Shown piece after piece: positions 2,879 to 43,314 of a DNA stretch of 64,000 nt. Source of the stretch: Bacilli bacterium (GTDB lineage Bacteria; Bacillota_I; Bacilli_A; RF39; UBA660); NCBI GenBank assembly GCA_017436345.1, contig JAFSDH010000010.1, positions 62,001 to 126,000 of the forward strand, read 5' to 3'. Within the stretch, counting starts at the first letter, position 1; each line of letters opens with the position of its first letter. The position numbers and the translations under genes were made by a program. Under the pieces are notes generated by a model. That model saw only the letters and a list, made by a program, of their open reading frames with translations, was not told the origin of the DNA and did no database searches.

Positions 2879-3564
2879 AATTTATAATATTCCTGTTTTA
2901 ACCAAGCACTTAAATCTTCTACTAAAGATACTTCGACATATTTACGTTCAACCATTTCTTCAAAAGTTGGTTTTTCAACCGTAAATAAATAATTATTTTC
3001 TATTATATCTAAGAACTTTAAATTATCTAAAAACTCTTCACGGATTGTCTTATCTTCACTAATTAAAAGATTTTCATAATCATTCATTCTCTTAAAACAA
3101 GTTGCCTCATCAATACTATTTCTTAAATTATCTAAATCATCTAAAGATATCTTACTCTTATCTCTATAATTTAATAATTGATTAGATTTTGAATAATTCT
3201 CACCCTCATTAGTAAACTCCATATAACAAACTCTTATATCTGCTACAACTCGATTTAAAACTTGTTTATATTCCAAATCATCAATATCAAAATCTTTTAA
3301 TTCCCACCAATAAAAACTATCATTAGGCACTGTAATATCTTCCATATTAGATATAATCCTACTTAAACTATTATCGTAAAGTTCCCACCAATGATTAACA
3401 CTATATTCTTCTACTATCATTTTTTTAGAACTAATAAATAAAGATAAAATAATTATAATAAATATGATTAAGATTGAAATAATACCAAATAACCAACTAT
3501 TTCTTTTTTCAACCTTTTCACTTTTTTCAATATTATTATCCTTCCCCTTAACTTGCTTCTTCAT
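2872..3564 (-). CDS. Single-pass membrane protein downstream of smc
   Basis: A 230-residue protein with a charged N-terminus, one transmembrane helix (about 24-45, Ile/Leu/Phe-rich) and an acidic, helical domain that would face outward. I do not recognise the family. The ribosome site AGGTGAATT overlaps the smc stop (TAGGTGA), so it is translated from the smc transcript. The linkage to smc may simply be transcriptional. The usual smc neighbours rnc and ftsY are absent here. Confidence 0.6.
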   Translation of the reverse strand: MKKQVKGKDNNIEKSEKVEKRNSWLFGIISILIIFIIIILSLFISSKKMIVEEYSVNHWWELYDNSLSRIISNMEDITVPNDSFYWWELKDFDIDDLEYKQVLNRVVADIRVCYMEFTNEGENYSKSNQLLNYRDKSKISLDDLDNLRNSIDEATCFKRMNDYENLLISEDKTIREEFLDNLKFLDIIENNYLFTVEKPTFEEMVERKYVEVSLVEDLSAWLKQEYYKLK

Positions 3565-3571
3565 AATTCAC

Positions 3572-6523
3572 CTACTTAACATCAATTTGATCTAATTTAA
3601 CACTAACAAGTTTTGATACACCAGACTCTTGCATTGTAATACCATATAAAGTATCTGCATATTCCATAGTCTTTTTCTTATGTGTAATTATCAAAAATTG
3701 TGTCTTATCTTTATAATGATTTAAATAAGTACCAAAATTATCAACATTAGCTTCATCAAGAGCCGCTTCCACTTCATCAAATAAACAAAATGGTACAGTT
3801 CTAACATTTAAAATAGCAAAAATTAAACTAATTGCTGTAAGAGTCTTTTCACCACCAGATAATAAAGATAAAGTCTTTAATTTTTTTCCTGGTGGACAAG
3901 CACTAATTTCAATATCAGTTTCAAGCACATTATTAGGATCAGTTAACTTCAAATGAGCACTTCCACCTTTAAATAACTCTTTAAATACTTTTCTAAATTC
4001 TTCATCAACAAGCTTAAACGTCTTAGTAAATTCGCTCTTCATAACATCATCCATCTCATCAATAATTTCAAGAAGAGTTTCTTTTGCATTCACTAAATCA
4101 TTTCTTTGGCTAGTTAAAAATTCATATCTTTCACTAACTCTTTTATATTCATCTATTGCCGCAAGATTAACCATTCCAAGTCTTTTAATATTATTCTTAT
4201 ATGTAGAAACTAAACTTCTAGCTTCTTCAACACTAACTTCTAGACTATAATTATCTCTAGCTTTTTCATATGTTAATTCATATTCTTCATTTAAAGTATT
4301 TAAATAATTATCAAGTTTAACATCATTTTTAGAAATAGATATTTCTAACTCTTTTAACTCTTTTTCATATTTATAAAGTTCTGAATTATTTATCTTATTT
4401 ATAGCTTCCATCTCATCTATCAAACTAGATAATTTATCTTTCTCAGATACCTTTACAGAAATACTCTTTTGTAATTCTTCTTTATCACGACTTACTTCAT
4501 AAAATAAGCTCATAATACGTTCTTCTTCTTTTGATAAAGATGAATCAACAACATGACCTAAACTATTAAGTTCTGATTCAACGCTTTCAAGTTCACCCTT
4601 TAATAAAATAATATCATTTTTATTAGTACGAATCTTTTCTTCAATTGAAACTAACTTAGTCTTTTCTTTATATATATCTTCTTCCTTAGAATGAATTAAA
4701 TCATTATATTCTTCTACTTGTTTATCAAGTTCAACTATTAAAGAATTAATTTCATTTTTTTGAAGCAAACATAAATCTAAATCTCTCTTATCACTAATAA
4801 CACTTCTCGTTATTTTTAAACTACCACCAGTAATAGATCCCCCAACATTAATAACTTCTCCATCAAGAGTAACGATCTTATAACGATTATTTATCTTACG
4901 ACTAATTCTATTAGCACTATCTAAATCTTTAACTAAAATAACATTACCAAGTTGATTAGATACAACACTGTGATAAATGCTTTCATATTCAACAACATTT
5001 ATAAATATATTAATATATCCTTCATCATTACAAATACTACTAACTATTTCCGGATCAACACCACGTGGTTTAACAACATTTAAAGGAAAGAAAGTAGCTC
5101 TACCTAAATTATTATCTTTAAGATAATTTATTGCATGTTTAGCACTATTTTCATTATCAACAACAACATATTGCTTACTAGATAAAAGTGCTACTTCTAA
5201 AGCTTTAGTATAACTATTATCACAACTAACTATATTCCCCAAAACTTGATGAATACCAGAAAGTCTAGGATTATTTAAAACAGCTTTAACACTACTATTT
5301 AAATTACCACCATTTTCAATGTTATTAGTAAGAACTTCTATTTTATGATTTAAATCAACTAAATCACGTCTCTTATATCCACTCTCACTTAAAATATTAG
5401 AATATTTATTCTTTAATGATGATAATTCCATATCAAGTTTATCAATAATACTACTTTGTTCATTATAATTATTCTTTAATATTTCATAATCTTTTTCTTT
5501 TAAATAAACATCATTAGAAATACGCATTGAATTTTCTTTTAAATTAGCAATATTTTCATGAATCTTTTGATCTCCAGCTTGATATTTACTTCTTTCTTTT
5601 AGAAGGTTCTTTTCACCATTTAATTGTTCTTCTTTACGAATTAAACTAACTAAATTATTATTAAGTTCATTAACTTCTAGAGAAATCTTAGATAACTCAT
5701 TCTTTTTATCAATAAGTTCACTATCATCTCTATTATTCTTTATATTTAAATTTAAAATATTATTATTTAATTCTTCTACCCTTTTCTTATCATTTTCACA
5801 AATATAATTAATACGCTCAATCTCACTAGCTATTAAAGCTACTTCAACGTCTTCTAACTTTTCTTTATTTTCAATATATTCTAAAGCTTGACGACTTTGT
5901 TCCTTTAAAGGTTCTACTTGAACTTCTAACTCAGCAATTATATCATCTACTCTATTCATATTATCACGAGTACGATCTAATTTTCGAATAGCTTCTTCTT
6001 TACGTTTTTTATATTTTAAAACACCTGCAGCTTCTTCAAAAATCGCACGACGATCACTAACTGAATTAGATAAAATTCTATCTACTTCCCCTTGCGAAAT
6101 AATATTAAAAGAATCTCTTCCAATCCCACTATCAATAAATAAGTCTGTAATATCTTTTAAACGACATTTTTCCCCATTTAAAAAATATTCATTTTCACCA
6201 CTACGATAAACTCTTCTTTTAACAACAACTTCATTATAAGGAATATTTAAATAATTATCACTATTATCAAAAGTCAACGAAACAGATGCAACATTTAAAG
6301 GATTTCTTGAATTACTACCAGTAAATATAACATCAGTCATCCCATTATCTCCTCTTAAAGATTTAACTGATTGCTCACCAAGCACCCATCTAACAGCATC
6401 AACAATATTACTTTTACCAGATCCATTTGGACCAACAATACAAGTTGTTTTATTATCAAGATTTATTGTTAATTTATCAGCAAACGATTTAAATCCTGTT
6501 GCTTGAATTTCCTTTAAATACAT
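3572..6523 (-). CDS. smc: Chromosome partition protein SMC, short-arm form
   Basis: The ATPase of the bacterial condensin, which with ScpA/ScpB compacts and resolves chromosomes. Residues (983-aa form): Walker A GPNGSGKSN near 31-39, coiled coil about 165-395, hinge about 410-560 (GIHQVLGNIVSC ... GGSITGGS), second coil about 570-800, ABC signature LSGGEKT near 889 and Walker B LFDEVEAALDEAN near 914-926. Both arms are roughly 100 residues shorter than in the 1186-aa B. subtilis protein, a size known for mycoplasma P115/SMC. ATG 6523 (MYLKEI) follows AGGGTGAT and matches the family start; an in-frame ATG three codons upstream is less likely. Confidence 0.95.
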   Translation of the reverse strand: MYLKEIQATGFKSFADKLTINLDNKTTCIVGPNGSGKSNIVDAVRWVLGEQSVKSLRGDNGMTDVIFTGSNSRNPLNVASVSLTFDNSDNYLNIPYNEVVVKRRVYRSGENEYFLNGEKCRLKDITDLFIDSGIGRDSFNIISQGEVDRILSNSVSDRRAIFEEAAGVLKYKKRKEEAIRKLDRTRDNMNRVDDIIAELEVQVEPLKEQSRQALEYIENKEKLEDVEVALIASEIERINYICENDKKRVEELNNNILNLNIKNNRDDSELIDKKNELSKISLEVNELNNNLVSLIRKEEQLNGEKNLLKERSKYQAGDQKIHENIANLKENSMRISNDVYLKEKDYEILKNNYNEQSSIIDKLDMELSSLKNKYSNILSESGYKRRDLVDLNHKIEVLTNNIENGGNLNSSVKAVLNNPRLSGIHQVLGNIVSCDNSYTKALEVALLSSKQYVVVDNENSAKHAINYLKDNNLGRATFFPLNVVKPRGVDPEIVSSICNDEGYINIFINVVEYESIYHSVVSNQLGNVILVKDLDSANRISRKINNRYKIVTLDGEVINVGGSITGGSLKITRSVISDKRDLDLCLLQKNEINSLIVELDKQVEEYNDLIHSKEEDIYKEKTKLVSIEEKIRTNKNDIILLKGELESVESELNSLGHVVDSSLSKEEERIMSLFYEVSRDKEELQKSISVKVSEKDKLSSLIDEMEAINKINNSELYKYEKELKELEISISKNDVKLDNYLNTLNEEYELTYEKARDNYSLEVSVEEARSLVSTYKNNIKRLGMVNLAAIDEYKRVSERYEFLTSQRNDLVNAKETLLEIIDEMDDVMKSEFTKTFKLVDEEFRKVFKELFKGGSAHLKLTDPNNVLETDIEISACPPGKKLKTLSLLSGGEKTLTAISLIFAILNVRTVPFCLFDEVEAALDEANVDNFGTYLNHYKDKTQFLIITHKKKTMEYADTLYGITMQESGVSKLVSVKLDQIDVK

Positions 6524-15034: not shown

Positions 15035-16846
15035 AATAAATTTCTTTTTTCTATATAAATAAATTGAATAACAAGAAATTAATATAATTATTACTATAAT
15101 AAAATAAGGATTCTTTATATTAGTATTAGGATTTTTTATCTTTTCAAACACAGCTATAAAAGTAACTTCTTCATCACCCATAACCATATCATCAGTAAAA
15201 CCTTCCCACTCAATAAATTCATATCCATCCTTCACTGGATTATCTGGCATTTTAATAATACTTCCATAAGCCACTTCTTCAATATTAGTCTTATTATCTA
15301 TTACCCAATTAACTTTATACATATTAGGATTATATTTAGCATATAAAATCGTATTCTTTGTAACAATTTCATCAAAATTATACTTTATAGTTAATCCTTC
15401 ATCTATATACCAACTATCAAAAGTATGTCCCCTTTTCTCCAAAACAAGACTAGAACTAACTACACTATCCTTATCAACTAAAACATCTAAAGAAGTATAA
15501 CTAGTATTCTTATCTTTACCACCATTACAATCAAAAGTTACTACATATTTAGTATCACTACTAGATAAAGTTTTTACGTACTCTTCCTTTATTTCGCCTT
15601 TGTTTTCTATTTGTGTATTAACTTCATAAGCATTCATAATAACACCATTATTTACTAATGAACCTGCACTTAAAGTTACGTTTCCTGTAATAGTTCCGTT
15701 ATTAACCGCTGTTGCCGTTGAATCATTAATAAATAAATCACCAACAATAGTACCATTATTTTCTAAACTAGCTGAAGTATTATTAATAACAACAATTCCC
15801 TCTACTTTCATATTACTATCAATTTTAAGAGCACTTCTAACAAATACAGTTGCTCCTTTCCATGAATCTAAATACGTTGTATTATTCTTAATAATACCAC
15901 TATTTAAATAAATTCCAGCATCTCCACTACCACTAGTACCATTAGTCCAACGTGACGCTATAAAGCTAGATAAACCACCAACGTTATTACTAACTTCACC
16001 ACCATTCATTACAAAACCGCCACCAGACTCTATTGTAATTAAACTACAAGTAGAATTACTACCATGATACTTAGAAAGATTATTTTTTATAACGCCATCA
16101 TTTAAAGTCAAAACACTGTCATTTACAATACCAAATAAAGTACCACTTCTAACACTACCAATATTATTAATAAAACTACCTGAAGTAATAACTAAATTAG
16201 ATTTAAATAATTGAAATAACCCACCTTTATTTCCTAAAACATAATTATTGCTAAAAACACTATTATCATTTATCTCTATATTAGAATTAGTAAAATTAGT
16301 TATAGTACCTTTACAATTAGTTATCATAATACCAGATAATATAACATTATTGTCACTAGCTTTTATTAAAAAATTCTTATCAACTTCACTACTATAAAAA
16401 TTCTTAATAATCACATTTTTCAAAGATAAATCCCCTACACTATCAATAAGATCAGAACTTAATACTTTATCTCCTATATTTAAATAATCACTAGTATTAG
16501 TTTTATAAGGATCTAATCTATCTTCATCACTTTTCCAACTCCAATTATTTTCACCGTCTATTAAAACATTACTTAAAACTAACTTACCAGTATCTCTTAC
16601 ATCAAATATTAGTCCATAATAATTATCATTATATAAAATACTCTTATTATTACCATCAACATTAACTTCATAATCAATAATAATACTATTACTTAAAACA
16701 ATATCTTTACTAAAAATAATATCTTCATATTTAGAACTAATCGCATCTAAAAACTCCTCCTCATTAGAAACAACTATCTCTTTAGCAGATACTAAAAAAG
16801 GACATAATAATATAAATGATAATATTGATATAAATATCTTTTTCAT
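15032..16846 (-). CDS. Surface beta-helix protein with InlB B-repeats and C-terminal anchor
   Basis: A 604-residue exported protein. A signal peptide of about 21 residues (ends LVSA) is followed by a long Asn/Ser/Gly-rich repetitive region (about 25-420) with parallel beta-helix rungs (FVMNGGEVSNNVGG, GIYLNSGIIKNN). Two InlB B-repeat (Listeria-Bacteroides) modules lie near 430-570 (RGHTFDSWYIDE, DGYEFIEWEGF). The tail has NPNTN, one hydrophobic helix and RKKK, like a SrtB-type (NPQTN) sorting signal or a plain membrane anchor. Probably an adhesin. ATG 16846 follows AGGAG; an ATG 4 nt upstream is out of frame. Confidence 0.75.
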   Translation of the reverse strand: MKKIFISILSFILLCPFLVSAKEIVVSNEEEFLDAISSKYEDIIFSKDIVLSNSIIIDYEVNVDGNNKSILYNDNYYGLIFDVRDTGKLVLSNVLIDGENNWSWKSDEDRLDPYKTNTSDYLNIGDKVLSSDLIDSVGDLSLKNVIIKNFYSSEVDKNFLIKASDNNVILSGIMITNCKGTITNFTNSNIEINDNSVFSNNYVLGNKGGLFQLFKSNLVITSGSFINNIGSVRSGTLFGIVNDSVLTLNDGVIKNNLSKYHGSNSTCSLITIESGGGFVMNGGEVSNNVGGLSSFIASRWTNGTSGSGDAGIYLNSGIIKNNTTYLDSWKGATVFVRSALKIDSNMKVEGIVVINNTSASLENNGTIVGDLFINDSTATAVNNGTITGNVTLSAGSLVNNGVIMNAYEVNTQIENKGEIKEEYVKTLSSSDTKYVVTFDCNGGKDKNTSYTSLDVLVDKDSVVSSSLVLEKRGHTFDSWYIDEGLTIKYNFDEIVTKNTILYAKYNPNMYKVNWVIDNKTNIEEVAYGSIIKMPDNPVKDGYEFIEWEGFTDDMVMGDEEVTFIAVFEKIKNPNTNIKNPYFIIVIIILISCYSIYLYRKKKFI

Positions 16847-39474: not shown

Positions 39475-39502
39475 ATAAAAAGAGCTTTAAAAAGCTCTTT
39501 TA
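39475..39502 (-). terminator. Terminator after the ubiquitin-domain gene
   Basis: Arms AAAGAGCTT (39479-39487) and AAGCTCTTT (39492-39500), then T-rich sequence. Confidence 0.85.
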
Positions 39503-40143
39503 CATTTTTTTACATATATCATAATACTAATAAGACTAATTAATGATAAAGAACCAGATAATATAAATAAATTAATATTATCACTAGTTTTAGGATTTGT
39601 TTCTTTTACAATTTCAATACCAGATGCCGTTATTTCTATATCACCAACAACCACATCACTAAAAATGACAACTTCCCCATTCTCTTTATTATAAGTATAT
39701 TTATCAGTTACTTCACCATTAATAAAAATAGTTATAACATCAGGCAGCTCATACCCTTCATTTTTAATTAAAGTCGTTTCATAATTTTTACCAAATTCAG
39801 CTTTTTCTAAATTAGAACTAGTTAAATTAGATAAATTATAAATAACATCATAATTAACTAATTTTAATAATAAATGAACTGTACTATCTTTTTGTATTTC
39901 ATAATCAGCTAAAGTTCTTCCATCTTCTAATTGGTCCCCAGCAAAAATTAATCTTTGTTGTTGAGGAAGAATTCCCACTTTATCATAAATTTTTGACTTA
40001 ACAGCTTCAACAGTATCACTGGACTCAACTTCTAAAGTAATATTAGTCCCATCAATCATCTTAACAAAAATTTGCATCGCAAAACAATTTGACGGAAAAA
40101 CTATTAATAACAAAATAAATATAAGGAATAAATTCTTCTTCAT
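39487..40143 (-). CDS. Secreted, surface-anchored ubiquitin-domain protein
   Basis: A 218-residue exported protein. Residues 1-22 are a signal peptide ending SNCFA. Residues 23-98 align without a gap to the 76 residues of eukaryotic ubiquitin, about 53 identical by my count, including [13 protein letters not shown], Ile44 and His68. Ubiquitin Lys6, 27, 29, 33 and 63 are kept; Lys11 is Thr and Lys48 is Asp; the terminal RLRGG is KLVNY, so conjugation is impossible. Residues about 99-180 are a beta module shared with the 42074 protein. The tail is NPKTSD (183-188), one helix and KKCKR. ATG 40143 follows AGGTGACGCTT. Confidence 0.9.
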
Positions 40144-40160
40144 AAGCGTCACCTATTATA

Positions 40161-42049: not shown

Positions 42050-42077
42050 AAAAAAAAGAGCTATTAACTAGCTCTAT
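42050..42077 (-). terminator. Terminator after the 42074-43189 gene
   Basis: Arms AGAGCTA (42057-42063) and TAGCTCT (42069-42075), then T7. Confidence 0.8.
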
Positions 42078-43189
42078 TTAATTTCTTTTTTTAAATATAA
42101 TGTAGCACCAAATAATCCAACAATTGAAACTAATCCACCAACAAAGAACATCATTACATTATCTGAAGTATTGGGATTATTAACTGAAATAGCATCAGCA
42201 ACAATTGTTAAATCACCTGTAATTAATTCTGCAGGTATAACTAATTTACCAGTTGCAGAATTATAAGTATATTCATCAGATTTTAACTCTTTACCACCAA
42301 TTAATACTTTTATAGTAGATGGTAATTGGTAATCTAAGTCCGCAAATAAGGTTGTATCATATTCAGTTTTTTCTTCAATTTCAGTAATAGATAAAGAATC
42401 AACAATATTTTTATACTTCTTTTCTACTTTTAATAAACGACCTGCCGGTATCATAAATAATTCATCTACATTATAATCACAATTATTATTAATCATAAAT
42501 TTAGTTTTTACACCCGCTAAATTTACTAATTCTAAAAACTTATTTGGATCTCCCTCAAAAAGACTTGCATCATTTGATAATGTAAAATCAAAAACATATT
42601 TTTGATTTGCTTTGAAAGTATCATCTTGATCCATTCTAACAACACCATCATCTGTCTTTATTCCCCAATCAAAAGGTCCAAAAACAAATGAATATATTTC
42701 TTCACCAATTGTAATAGTATAACGAACAGCTGTATCTTTTTGCTTGTGTCCTACATTTAATCCTAAAATTTCTAAATTAACTTCATCAACACCATCAACA
42801 ACAAAATAATTATATTCATCCATAGCATATCCATTGACATAACTTTCACTATCATCACTCAATGAATAACCCTTAGATTCTAAATCAGAAATTATAGCAT
42901 CAAAATCTTTAATTTCTGGAGAATATGCTTCTAAAGAATTAAATACATCTTGAGAAGTCATCTCTTCATCAGCTTGAACATGTCTCCAAATAATTTCAAC
43001 ATCATCATATTTAACTTCATCTATATCATTAGATATAATAAAATCAGCAGTAAATACAGGATGTTCTCCAGCTTTTGGTTCAACAACAATTCCTTCTATT
43101 TTAGTAAGTTCAACAGCCGCACTAACTTTATTCGGTATAAATACAAATAAAGTTAAAATAATAAAAAATAAAAATAAATTCTTTTTCAT
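42074..43189 (-). CDS. Surface protein sharing the C-terminal module of the ubiquitin-domain protein
   Basis: A 371-residue exported protein: signal peptide of about 24 residues (ends KVSA), a beta-rich middle I do not recognise, and near 280-340 the module LPSTIKVLIGGKEL, YTYNSATGKLVIPAELITGDLTI, parallel to [36 protein letters not shown] of the ubiquitin-domain protein. The tail is NPNTSDN, one helix and KKEIK. ATG 43189 follows AGGTGGATAAT (an in-frame GTG lies inside that site). Probably displayed on the surface by the same route. Confidence 0.72.
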   Translation of the reverse strand: MKKNLFLFFIILTLFVFIPNKVSAAVELTKIEGIVVEPKAGEHPVFTADFIISNDIDEVKYDDVEIIWRHVQADEEMTSQDVFNSLEAYSPEIKDFDAIISDLESKGYSLSDDSESYVNGYAMDEYNYFVVDGVDEVNLEILGLNVGHKQKDTAVRYTITIGEEIYSFVFGPFDWGIKTDDGVVRMDQDDTFKANQKYVFDFTLSNDASLFEGDPNKFLELVNLAGVKTKFMINNNCDYNVDELFMIPAGRLLKVEKKYKNIVDSLSITEIEEKTEYDTTLFADLDYQLPSTIKVLIGGKELKSDEYTYNSATGKLVIPAELITGDLTIVADAISVNNPNTSDNVMMFFVGGLVSIVGLFGATLYLKKEIK

Positions 43190-43314
43190 ATTATCCACCT
43201 ATCGTATATTTTATACTAAAATTATATCATGATAATTTTTCACAAATCAATATATAAAATATGAAAAGATAAAATTAAAAAAATTTATTTATTATATTAA
43301 CAACTACACATTTA

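What the first reader, a model, noticed from the sequence alone, without database searches (positions are those of the whole stretch)
39487..40143. Ubiquitin presented on a bacterial surface: signal peptide, ubiquitin fold without Gly-Gly, shared beta module, NPKTS anchor
Seen: residues 23-98 of this exported protein align gap-free with all 76 residues of eukaryotic ubiquitin; I count about 53 identities (about 70%). The predicted signal cleavage is directly before ubiquitin Met1. Lys48 is Asp, Lys11 is Thr and the C-terminal RLRGG is KLVNY, so it cannot be conjugated; Lys6, 27, 29, 33, 63 and the Ile44/His68 face remain. It then continues into a module shared with another surface protein and a sorting-type tail. 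Known: Bacteroides fragilis has a secreted ubiquitin homologue. Inference: gene transfer from a eukaryote, then use as a mimic that binds host ubiquitin readers, E1/E2/E3 or deubiquitinases, or is decoy antigen. No E1/E2/DUB genes are in the window.
Basis: partly seen in the sequence, partly recalled or inferred. Interest (0 to 1): 0.95.

Follow-up and report, generated by a model that had tools for sequence, protein, structure and literature searches.

The report
Ubiquitin worn on a bacterial surface
A gut-type bacterium makes a near-copy of ubiquitin, the protein tag of animal, plant and fungal cells, exports it and appears to fix it to its cell wall; related proteins in many other bacteria suggest that wearing a ubiquitin is a recurring, so far undescribed bacterial habit whose purpose is untested.

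Summary
The gene at 39487-40143 (-) encodes a signal peptide, a 76-residue ubiquitin domain starting at the predicted cleavage point (53/76 identities to human), an Ig-like module shared with a neighbouring surface protein, and an NPKTSD sorting tail. The domain models within 0.5-0.8 A of ubiquitin. The gene is resident: GC3 matches the contig, and a sister genome has the same gene order without it. The genome encodes a class B sortase; four relatives carry such a sortase beside their exported-ubiquitin gene, and two genera share the pair as a 99.5%-identical cassette. A wider scan found 253 prokaryotic loci; of 85 examined, 70 are exported, mostly with Met1 as mature N-terminus, on unrelated anchors (sortase, dockerin, SLH, autotransporter, IPTL-CTERM, type IX). 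In several lineages the domain is under strong purifying selection (dN/dS 0.02-0.12; rest of protein 0.14-0.42), while Gly75-Gly76 is usually lost. Best reading: a displayed, non-conjugatable ubiquitin ligand, probably for eukaryotic ubiquitin readers; BfUbb-like antagonism of bacteria is the main rival. No function was tested. Closest known: secreted BfUbb of Bacteroides fragilis.

The parts
39487..40143 (-). Exported ubiquitin-domain surface protein, 218 aa from ATG (alternative GTG at 40152)
40149..40154 (-). Shine-Dalgarno-like AGGTGA before the ATG at 40143
   Evidence: read directly; inference
40078..40143 (-). Signal peptide, residues 1-22, predicted SPase I cleavage CFA|M directly before ubiquitin Met1
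   Evidence: sequence; nine of ten family relatives read in full end the signal peptide in A directly before Met1, the tenth (L132) in A before Ser; no SignalP run
39850..40077 (-). Ubiquitin domain, residues 23-98, 53/76 identities to human ubiquitin, no C-terminal Gly-Gly
   Evidence: AlphaFold2 model vs PDB Z 16.8, rmsd 0.5 A over 74 residues
39610..39852 (-). Ig-like beta-sandwich stalk module shared with the protein at 42074-43198 and with relatives L034 and L021
   Evidence: model pLDDT 95; only insignificant matches to Ig and Rib folds
39580..39597 (-). Sorting motif NPKTSD
39490..39579 (-). Hydrophobic stretch and positive tail after the sorting motif
   Evidence: helix 190-217 in the model
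39478..39501 (-). Intrinsic terminator, 10-bp stem, overlapping the stop codon
   Evidence: 0.0 expected in shuffles
42074..43198 (-). Second NPNTSD-anchored surface protein with the same stalk module and a different head
   Evidence: no Pfam match
42182..42439 (-). Copy of the stalk module in that second protein

Best explanation
Shown by sequence: the gene encodes a Sec-exported protein whose mature N-terminus is predicted to be a ubiquitin fold beginning at Met1, carried on an Ig-like stalk and ending in a class B sortase signal (NPKTSD). Inferred: the class B sortase encoded elsewhere in the same genome links it to the cell wall, so that a ubiquitin head that cannot be conjugated (no Gly-Gly) is displayed outside. 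Inferred, less certain: the head is a ligand. It presents the hydrophobic ubiquitin face (positions 8, 44, 68, 70) to ubiquitin-reading proteins of eukaryotes that meet the cell, such as host epithelium or leukocytes, or gut ciliates and fungi, and so serves adhesion, decoy or modulation of uptake. The domain ultimately comes from a eukaryotic ubiquitin and has since spread and been re-mounted between bacteria.
For: Domain identity and fold. Export layout in ten family relatives in different genera. Class B sortase in the own genome, TIGR03064 166 bits over cut-off 153.75 (L134); a TLSTC sortase directly next to the exported-ubiquitin gene in L123, L124, L126, L127, three genes away in L132, and a class B sortase next to it in a Clostridium MAG, L090. 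Sortase plus ubiquitin gene are 99.45% identical over 2,008 bp in two genera with unrelated downstream genes. Across prokaryotes 70 of 85 loci are exported, only 7 of those 70 keep Gly75-Gly76, and the anchors are unrelated, which marks the ubiquitin head as the conserved payload. Purifying selection on the head: dN/dS 0.02-0.12 against 0.14-0.42 for the rest of the same protein in 14 of 15 pairs (the near-identical pair L043/L051 is uninformative); 0.13-0.22 in the window's family. Ile44-patch residues are 92% retained in the wide set while G76 is 17%.
Against: No partner, expression or surface location has been shown. In the window's own family the Ile44 patch is no better kept (0.69) than the average residue (0.71), and two members (L008, L009) have diverged to about 50% identity, so the constraint there may be mainly on the fold. 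The 80 kept loci were chosen for similarity to the query, which inflates apparent conservation. The gene is patchy (11 of 385 genomes in the order; absent in 8 congeners, some incomplete) and broken in one relative (L133), so it is dispensable. Strong constraint does not by itself say that the partner is eukaryotic.
Confidence: 0.5

Rival explanations
1. The displayed ubiquitin is an interbacterial antagonist like BfUbb: the domain, displayed or shed, binds an exported target of related bacteria (for BfUbb a peptidyl-prolyl isomerase) and stops growth; producers carry a resistant target variant.
For: The only functionally studied relative, secreted BfUbb of Bacteroides fragilis, kills other strains, starts exactly at ubiquitin Met1, lacks Gly-Gly and seems to need no dedicated immunity protein (PMC5705921, PMC3352274), and its sensitivity depends on a PPIase residue according to a citing paper (PMC12396204). 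Patchy presence and a mobile sortase-ubiquitin cassette fit antagonism. Four standalone secreted copies exist in other bacteria.
Against: BfUbb is free and diffusible, whereas this protein is predicted to be wall-anchored, limiting it to contact. BfUbb has drifted (55% to the window domain against about 70% for human ubiquitin) and bovine ubiquitin is inactive in that assay, while most exported bacterial ubiquitins seen here stay close to the eukaryotic form.
Confidence: 0.25
2. The domain is only a hardy structural cap: ubiquitin is small, fast-folding and protease-resistant, and was recruited as an N-terminal tip of surface proteins without any specific ligand.
For: In the window's family the core is best kept (0.87) and no interaction patch stands out; L008 and L009 diverged to about 50% yet keep export and anchor. 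Anchors and stalks are freely exchanged.
Against: dN/dS of 0.02-0.12, several-fold below the rest of the same proteins, and retention of exposed functional residues in the wide set, exceed what a generic stable cap needs. Strict N-terminal placement beginning at Met1 is not needed for a cap.
Confidence: 0.2
3. Assembly contamination or a mis-binned eukaryotic or viral contig.
For: The genome bin is 5.75% contaminated and larger than its kin. The scanned collection does contain some ubiquitins without export signals that could be contaminants.
Against: The gene lies inside a 155 kb contig between bacterial genes, GC3 is 0.124 against 0.122 +/- 0.025 for window genes, its stalk module occurs in a neighbouring bacterial gene, it has a bacterial signal peptide and sorting tail, and a sister genome shows the same gene order without it.
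Confidence: 0.01

Closest known systems
BfUbb (ubb) of Bacteroides fragilis (PMC3352274, PMC5705921; crystal structure entry 8hm2)
   Same: Bacterially encoded, eukaryotic-type ubiquitin with a SPase I signal peptide cleaved exactly before Met1; no Gly-Gly; strain-variable; gut bacterium
   Different: BfUbb is a free 76-aa secreted protein ending in Cys, 63% identical to human. The window protein is a multidomain protein with an NPxT sorting tail, 70% identical to human and only 55% to BfUbb, with no Cys at the end of the ubiquitin domain
Eukaryotic ubiquitin (PF00240)
   Same: 53/76 identities; fold within 0.5-0.8 A; Ile44, His68 and five of seven lysines kept
   Different: No Gly-Gly, Lys48 and Lys11 lost, exported by a bacterium and mounted on an Ig-like stalk; no conjugation machinery found
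Class B sortase substrates of Gram-positive bacteria (NPxTx signal)
   Same: NPKTSD motif, hydrophobic stretch and positive tail; class B sortase in the genome and next to the gene in relatives
   Different: Known class B substrates are mostly haem-uptake or pilus proteins (general knowledge); none known to me carries a ubiquitin head
Secreted ubiquitin effectors of plant-parasitic nematodes (described in PMC5705921)
   Same: Signal peptide before ubiquitin; used outside the producing cell
   Different: Eukaryotic producer, C-terminal extension cleaved in the plant, not surface-anchored
Annotated 'ubiquitin family protein' WP_013483628.1 on plasmid pRUMAL01 of Ruminococcus albus 7
   Same: Signal peptide ending NA|M1, ubiquitin head, then a beta-rich module; cultured isolate
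   Different: Different second module, similar to that of exported-ubiquitin protein L135 of another Bacilli family; no NPxT tail

Membership tests
Ubiquitin fold / PF00240 | Sequence over the Pfam gathering score | tested here: met
   91.7 bits against 25.4
Ubiquitin fold / PF00240 | Beta-grasp structure superposable on ubiquitin | tested here: met
   Model residues 21-94, Z 16.8, rmsd 0.5 A over 74 residues
Conjugatable ubiquitin | C-terminal Gly-Gly after processing | tested here: not met
   Positions 75-76 are Asn-Tyr and the chain continues
Conjugatable ubiquitin | E1 and E2 enzymes in the same genome | tested here: inconclusive
   One ThiF-family protein of 236 aa; no UQ_con match, but the control genomes also gave none
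BfUbb-type secreted bacterial ubiquitin | Signal peptide with mature protein starting at Met1 | tested here: met
   CFA|MQIF by rule; same layout in relatives
BfUbb-type secreted bacterial ubiquitin | Free-standing protein of about 76 aa ending in Cys | tested here: not met
   218 aa with stalk and sorting tail
BfUbb-type secreted bacterial ubiquitin | Kills related strains, targets a PPIase | not testable with these tools
   needs purified protein and strains
Class B sortase substrate | NPxTx motif, hydrophobic stretch, positive tail | tested here: met
   NPKTSD...KKCKRAF
Class B sortase substrate | Class B sortase in the genome | tested here: met
   L134 TIGR03064 166.0 bits, cut-off 153.75
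Class B sortase substrate | Covalent link to the cell wall | not testable with these tools
   needs cell-wall fractionation or mass spectrometry

The most novel reading that the evidence does not exclude
Exported ubiquitin heads are a general, convergent class of prokaryotic surface ligand: eukaryotic ubiquitin captured, freed of its conjugation tail, placed at the mature N-terminus and mounted on whatever anchor the lineage uses (sortase, dockerin, S-layer, autotransporter, IPTL-CTERM, type IX), and kept near-eukaryotic by selection because eukaryotic ubiquitin readers bind it.
Probability: 0.35. Interest if true: 0.93.

Novelty: new variant of a known kind. Interest (0 to 1): 0.82.

Why it matters
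Bacterial ubiquitin has been treated as a curiosity of Bacteroides fragilis. Here it is the head of a cell-surface protein with a defined anchoring enzyme, it moves between genera with that enzyme, and it belongs to a set of exported ubiquitins spread over many phyla on unrelated anchors. If the heads bind eukaryotic ubiquitin readers, this is a widespread route by which microbes engage eukaryotic cells from outside; if they bind bacterial targets, it is a widespread competition system. Either way it is directly testable, because cultured members exist (Ruminococcus albus 7, Pedobacter cryoconitis, Dyella, Cohnella, Conexibacter) and purified-ubiquitin assays are routine. It also bears on autoimmunity to ubiquitin and on ubiquitin signals in gut proteomics.

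Tried and rejected
The first genome-contig scan with the whole protein found no relatives; an alignment of ubiquitin domains was needed. Phage records gave no match; plasmids gave two. A script for neighbouring genes first mis-assigned the ubiquitin ORF (its distances should be ignored) and was redone with BLAST: no gene family accompanies exported ubiquitin across phyla; the class B sortase is the only plausible functional partner, and only in Bacillota. The rest were lineage synteny. A tree of 90 ubiquitin domains is mostly unresolved: it neither shows nor excludes a single eukaryotic donor; yeast and plant ubiquitins in it were typed from general knowledge. Search with the stalk module alone gave only weak matches to Ig-like and Rib folds, and Pfam reported no model for it. 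Weak PF00240 hits L012 and L014 look like ribosomal protein L23 and L013 is unassigned; all were dropped. The literature searches found no description of widespread exported bacterial ubiquitins, but only open-licence papers are held; Jiang et al. 2024 on the BfUbb target was available only through citing papers.

Full report
OBSERVATION. The ORF on the minus strand (39487-40143 with the ATG; 40152 with an upstream GTG) encodes 218 aa. Residues 23-98 match human ubiquitin without gaps, 53 of 76 identical; BLAST gives 72.6% over 73 residues; Pfam PF00240 scores 91.7 bits against a cut-off of 25.4 and is the only such match in the 1.70 Mb genome. Differences from human include T7M, L8I, T9D, K11T, P19S, N25A, K48D, V70L, R72K, R74V, G75N, G76Y. 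AlphaFold2 on a nine-row alignment gives mean pLDDT 82, with the ubiquitin part at about 83-91 per ten-residue block; it superposes on solved ubiquitins with Z 16.8 and 0.5 A over 74 residues, and on the BfUbb crystal structure 8hm2 at 55% identity. The remaining part is an Ig-like sandwich (pLDDT 95 when folded alone) with no significant PDB match, 38% identical over 60 residues to the C-terminal part of the surface protein at 42074-43198, then NPKTSD, a hydrophobic helix and a positive tail. A terminator overlaps the stop codon.

RESIDENT, NOT CONTAMINANT. The window lies in a 155 kb contig. GC3 of the gene is 0.124 against 0.122 +/- 0.025 for window genes. In a sister genome of the same genus (G385, L149) the flanking genes are present in the same order: zinc-ribbon-like protein, HAD-like hydrolase, pseudouridine synthase, desulfoferrodoxin-like protein, HMA-like protein (names are my reading of the sequences). 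There the ubiquitin gene and the second NPxT protein are both missing at their exact positions (34 bp between the zinc-ribbon and HAD genes instead of about 790). So each is a single-gene gain here or loss there. Eight other genomes of the genus lack the gene, some of them incomplete.

FAMILY RELATIVES. In 385 genomes of the order, 11 (the window's own included) carry PF00240 over the cut-off, in several genera; 4 of 43 genomes in another Bacilli family do too. Ten relatives were read in full. All have a signal peptide; in nine the predicted cleavage A| is directly before Met1, and in the most divergent one (L132, 36% identical over 63 residues) the head starts with Ser. Tails are NPxT in all but L130 (VPETGD) and L132 (SPNTVD); stalks are the shared module or Listeria-Bacteroides / InlB-type repeats. 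Three of these records are public MAGs: L021 (water deer rectum), L047 (goat colon) and L034 (SIG196) (contig lengths identify them with G133, G078 and G270). The copy in G155 (L133) is frameshifted and decayed in a locus collinear with the intact one in G078, so the gene is dispensable.

CLASS B SORTASE LINK. A search with PF04203 and inspection show a TLSTC sortase convergently or divergently adjacent to the ubiquitin gene in G270, G133, G078 and G015, and three genes away in G320. NCBIfam calls the sortase beside the gene in L123, the window genome's own sortase (L134, on another contig) and the one beside the ubiquitin gene of a Clostridium MAG (L090) class B, all over the curated cut-off. 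NPxTx is the class B type of signal (general knowledge). With one to a few such sortases per genome of about a thousand genes, repeated adjacency is not chance. In G078 and G015, two genera, sortase plus ubiquitin gene are 99.45% identical over 2,008 bp while the downstream genes differ; a tyrosine recombinase lies a few kilobases away in G078, and a serine recombinase and a MobV-like relaxase share the G133 contig. The pair therefore appears to move as a cassette. The window's own gene is not beside a sortase.

WIDER DISTRIBUTION. A degenerate scan of 84,980 species genomes gave 253 loci encoding relatives; the best 80 were kept, plus 8 viral contigs. They come from Bacillota, Pseudomonadota, Verrucomicrobiota, Actinomycetota, Bacteroidota, Myxococcota and methanogen MAGs, from isolates (Pedobacter cryoconitis, Dyella sp. 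OK004, Conexibacter, Cohnella, Leeia oryzae, Cellulomonas biazotea, Denitrificimonas caeni, Verrucomicrobia IMCC26134 complete genome), and a plasmid of Ruminococcus albus 7. By a simple hydrophobicity and small-residue rule 59 of 85 non-duplicate loci have a signal peptide ending exactly before Met1 and 11 more have a signal peptide and short linker. Pfam on 51 of them finds autotransporter domains (8), SLH (4), dockerin (4), IPTL-CTERM (4), InlB-type and Listeria-Bacteroides repeats (4 each) and, in one of ten looked at in detail, a type IX tail, behind an N-terminal ubiquitin. Only 7 of the 70 exported ones keep Gly75-Gly76; two of these (Dyella L044, Burkholderiales L064) are free-standing full ubiquitins ending RLRGG. 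MAG records may include contaminants, mainly among the 15 without an export signal.

SELECTION. In closely related pairs from Ruminococcus and other Clostridia, Bacteroidales and Brevundimonas, the ubiquitin domain has dN/dS of 0.02-0.12 while the rest of the same protein has 0.14-0.42 (14 of 15 pairs; the near-identical pair L043/L051 is uninformative; the pairs are not all independent). In the window's family the value is 0.13-0.22 at dS near 1. In the wide set the Ile44 patch is 92% retained and the C-tail 53% (G76 17%); positions that vary most within the domain include 19, 28 and 57, which also differ among eukaryotic ubiquitins (general knowledge for the last point). In the window's family the Ile44 patch (0.69) is not better kept than average (0.71), though Ile44 and His68 are kept in seven of eight. 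Caveat: loci were selected for similarity to the query.

ORIGIN. The tree has too few columns. It does show a strongly supported group joining two family members (L006, L007) with a Clostridia MAG (L098) and another Bacilli family (L135), apart from the window, L002-L005 and Clostridia L040 and L072. So this bacterial family holds at least two lineages with kin in Clostridia: transfer among bacteria after an ultimate eukaryotic source. The donor is not identified.

FUNCTION. Shown by sequence: gene, domains, sorting signal, sortase in the genome, distribution, selection. Inferred: wall anchoring and surface exposure. Inferred with moderate confidence: the head is a ligand. The main alternatives are eukaryotic ubiquitin readers and a BfUbb-like bacterial target. 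BfUbb is secreted, starts at Met1, lacks Gly-Gly, binds human E1 in vitro (PMC3352274), kills other B. fragilis strains while bovine ubiquitin does not (PMC5705921), and its action depends on a peptidyl-prolyl isomerase (Jiang et al. 2024, via PMC12396204). Extracellular ubiquitin is reported to act on CXCR4, which is disputed, and to be antimicrobial (PMC10892293). I favour the eukaryote-directed ligand because most exported bacterial ubiquitins seen here are held close to the eukaryotic sequence while losing only the conjugation tail; a purely bacterial partner would more likely allow the drift seen in BfUbb. This is an argument, not a test, and is weaker for the window's own family.

NOVELTY. 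Secreted bacterial ubiquitin is described from one species in the papers held. A wall-anchored, sortase-linked, mobile form and the breadth of exported ubiquitins on unrelated anchors were not found there. I file it as a new variant of a known kind.

Noticed in passing
L044 (Dyella sp. OK004) 5905-6228 and L064 (Burkholderiales MAG) 5917-6228: Free-standing, signal-peptide-bearing ubiquitins that keep RLRGG, i.e. apparently secreted ubiquitin that could still be conjugated.
   Followed up: partly
L102, L103, L104 (IMG/VR contigs): Three viral-collection contigs carry an exported ubiquitin with an IPTL-CTERM tail, similar in layout to Brevundimonas L055 and L083; prophage cargo or mis-sorted bacterial DNA is open.
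   Followed up: no
L058 and L096 (Methanothrix / Methanotrichaceae MAGs): Archaeal MAGs with exported ubiquitin; L058 is a 1,491-aa protein with SdrD_B and SpaA-type domains.
   Followed up: no
L111 (Ruminococcus albus 7 plasmid pRUMAL01) and L135 (Bacilli, G516): Exported-ubiquitin proteins of two classes have similar modules after ubiquitin; L111 has other exported proteins with similar modules and a dockerin-type protein nearby.
   Followed up: partly
L133 (G155:C40) about 3490-4110: Frameshifted, decayed copy of the exported-ubiquitin gene in a locus collinear with the intact copy in L125.
   Followed up: partly
window 15035-16846 (-): Third surface protein in the window with an NPxT-type tail (NPNTN), 604 aa, probably another class B sortase substrate.
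   Followed up: no
L023, L066, L086, L099 (Actinomycetota MAGs): Actinobacterial loci (L023 and L066 collinear) with two ubiquitin-matching ORFs per locus, no obvious signal peptide, and tails ending in P-N-F-T/A-G; possibly a different, intracellular use.
   Followed up: no
G000 as a whole: The window genome (1.70 Mb, 5.75% contamination) is larger than most of its family (about 1.0-1.3 Mb), so some contigs may be foreign, though the ubiquitin contig looks native.
   Followed up: partly
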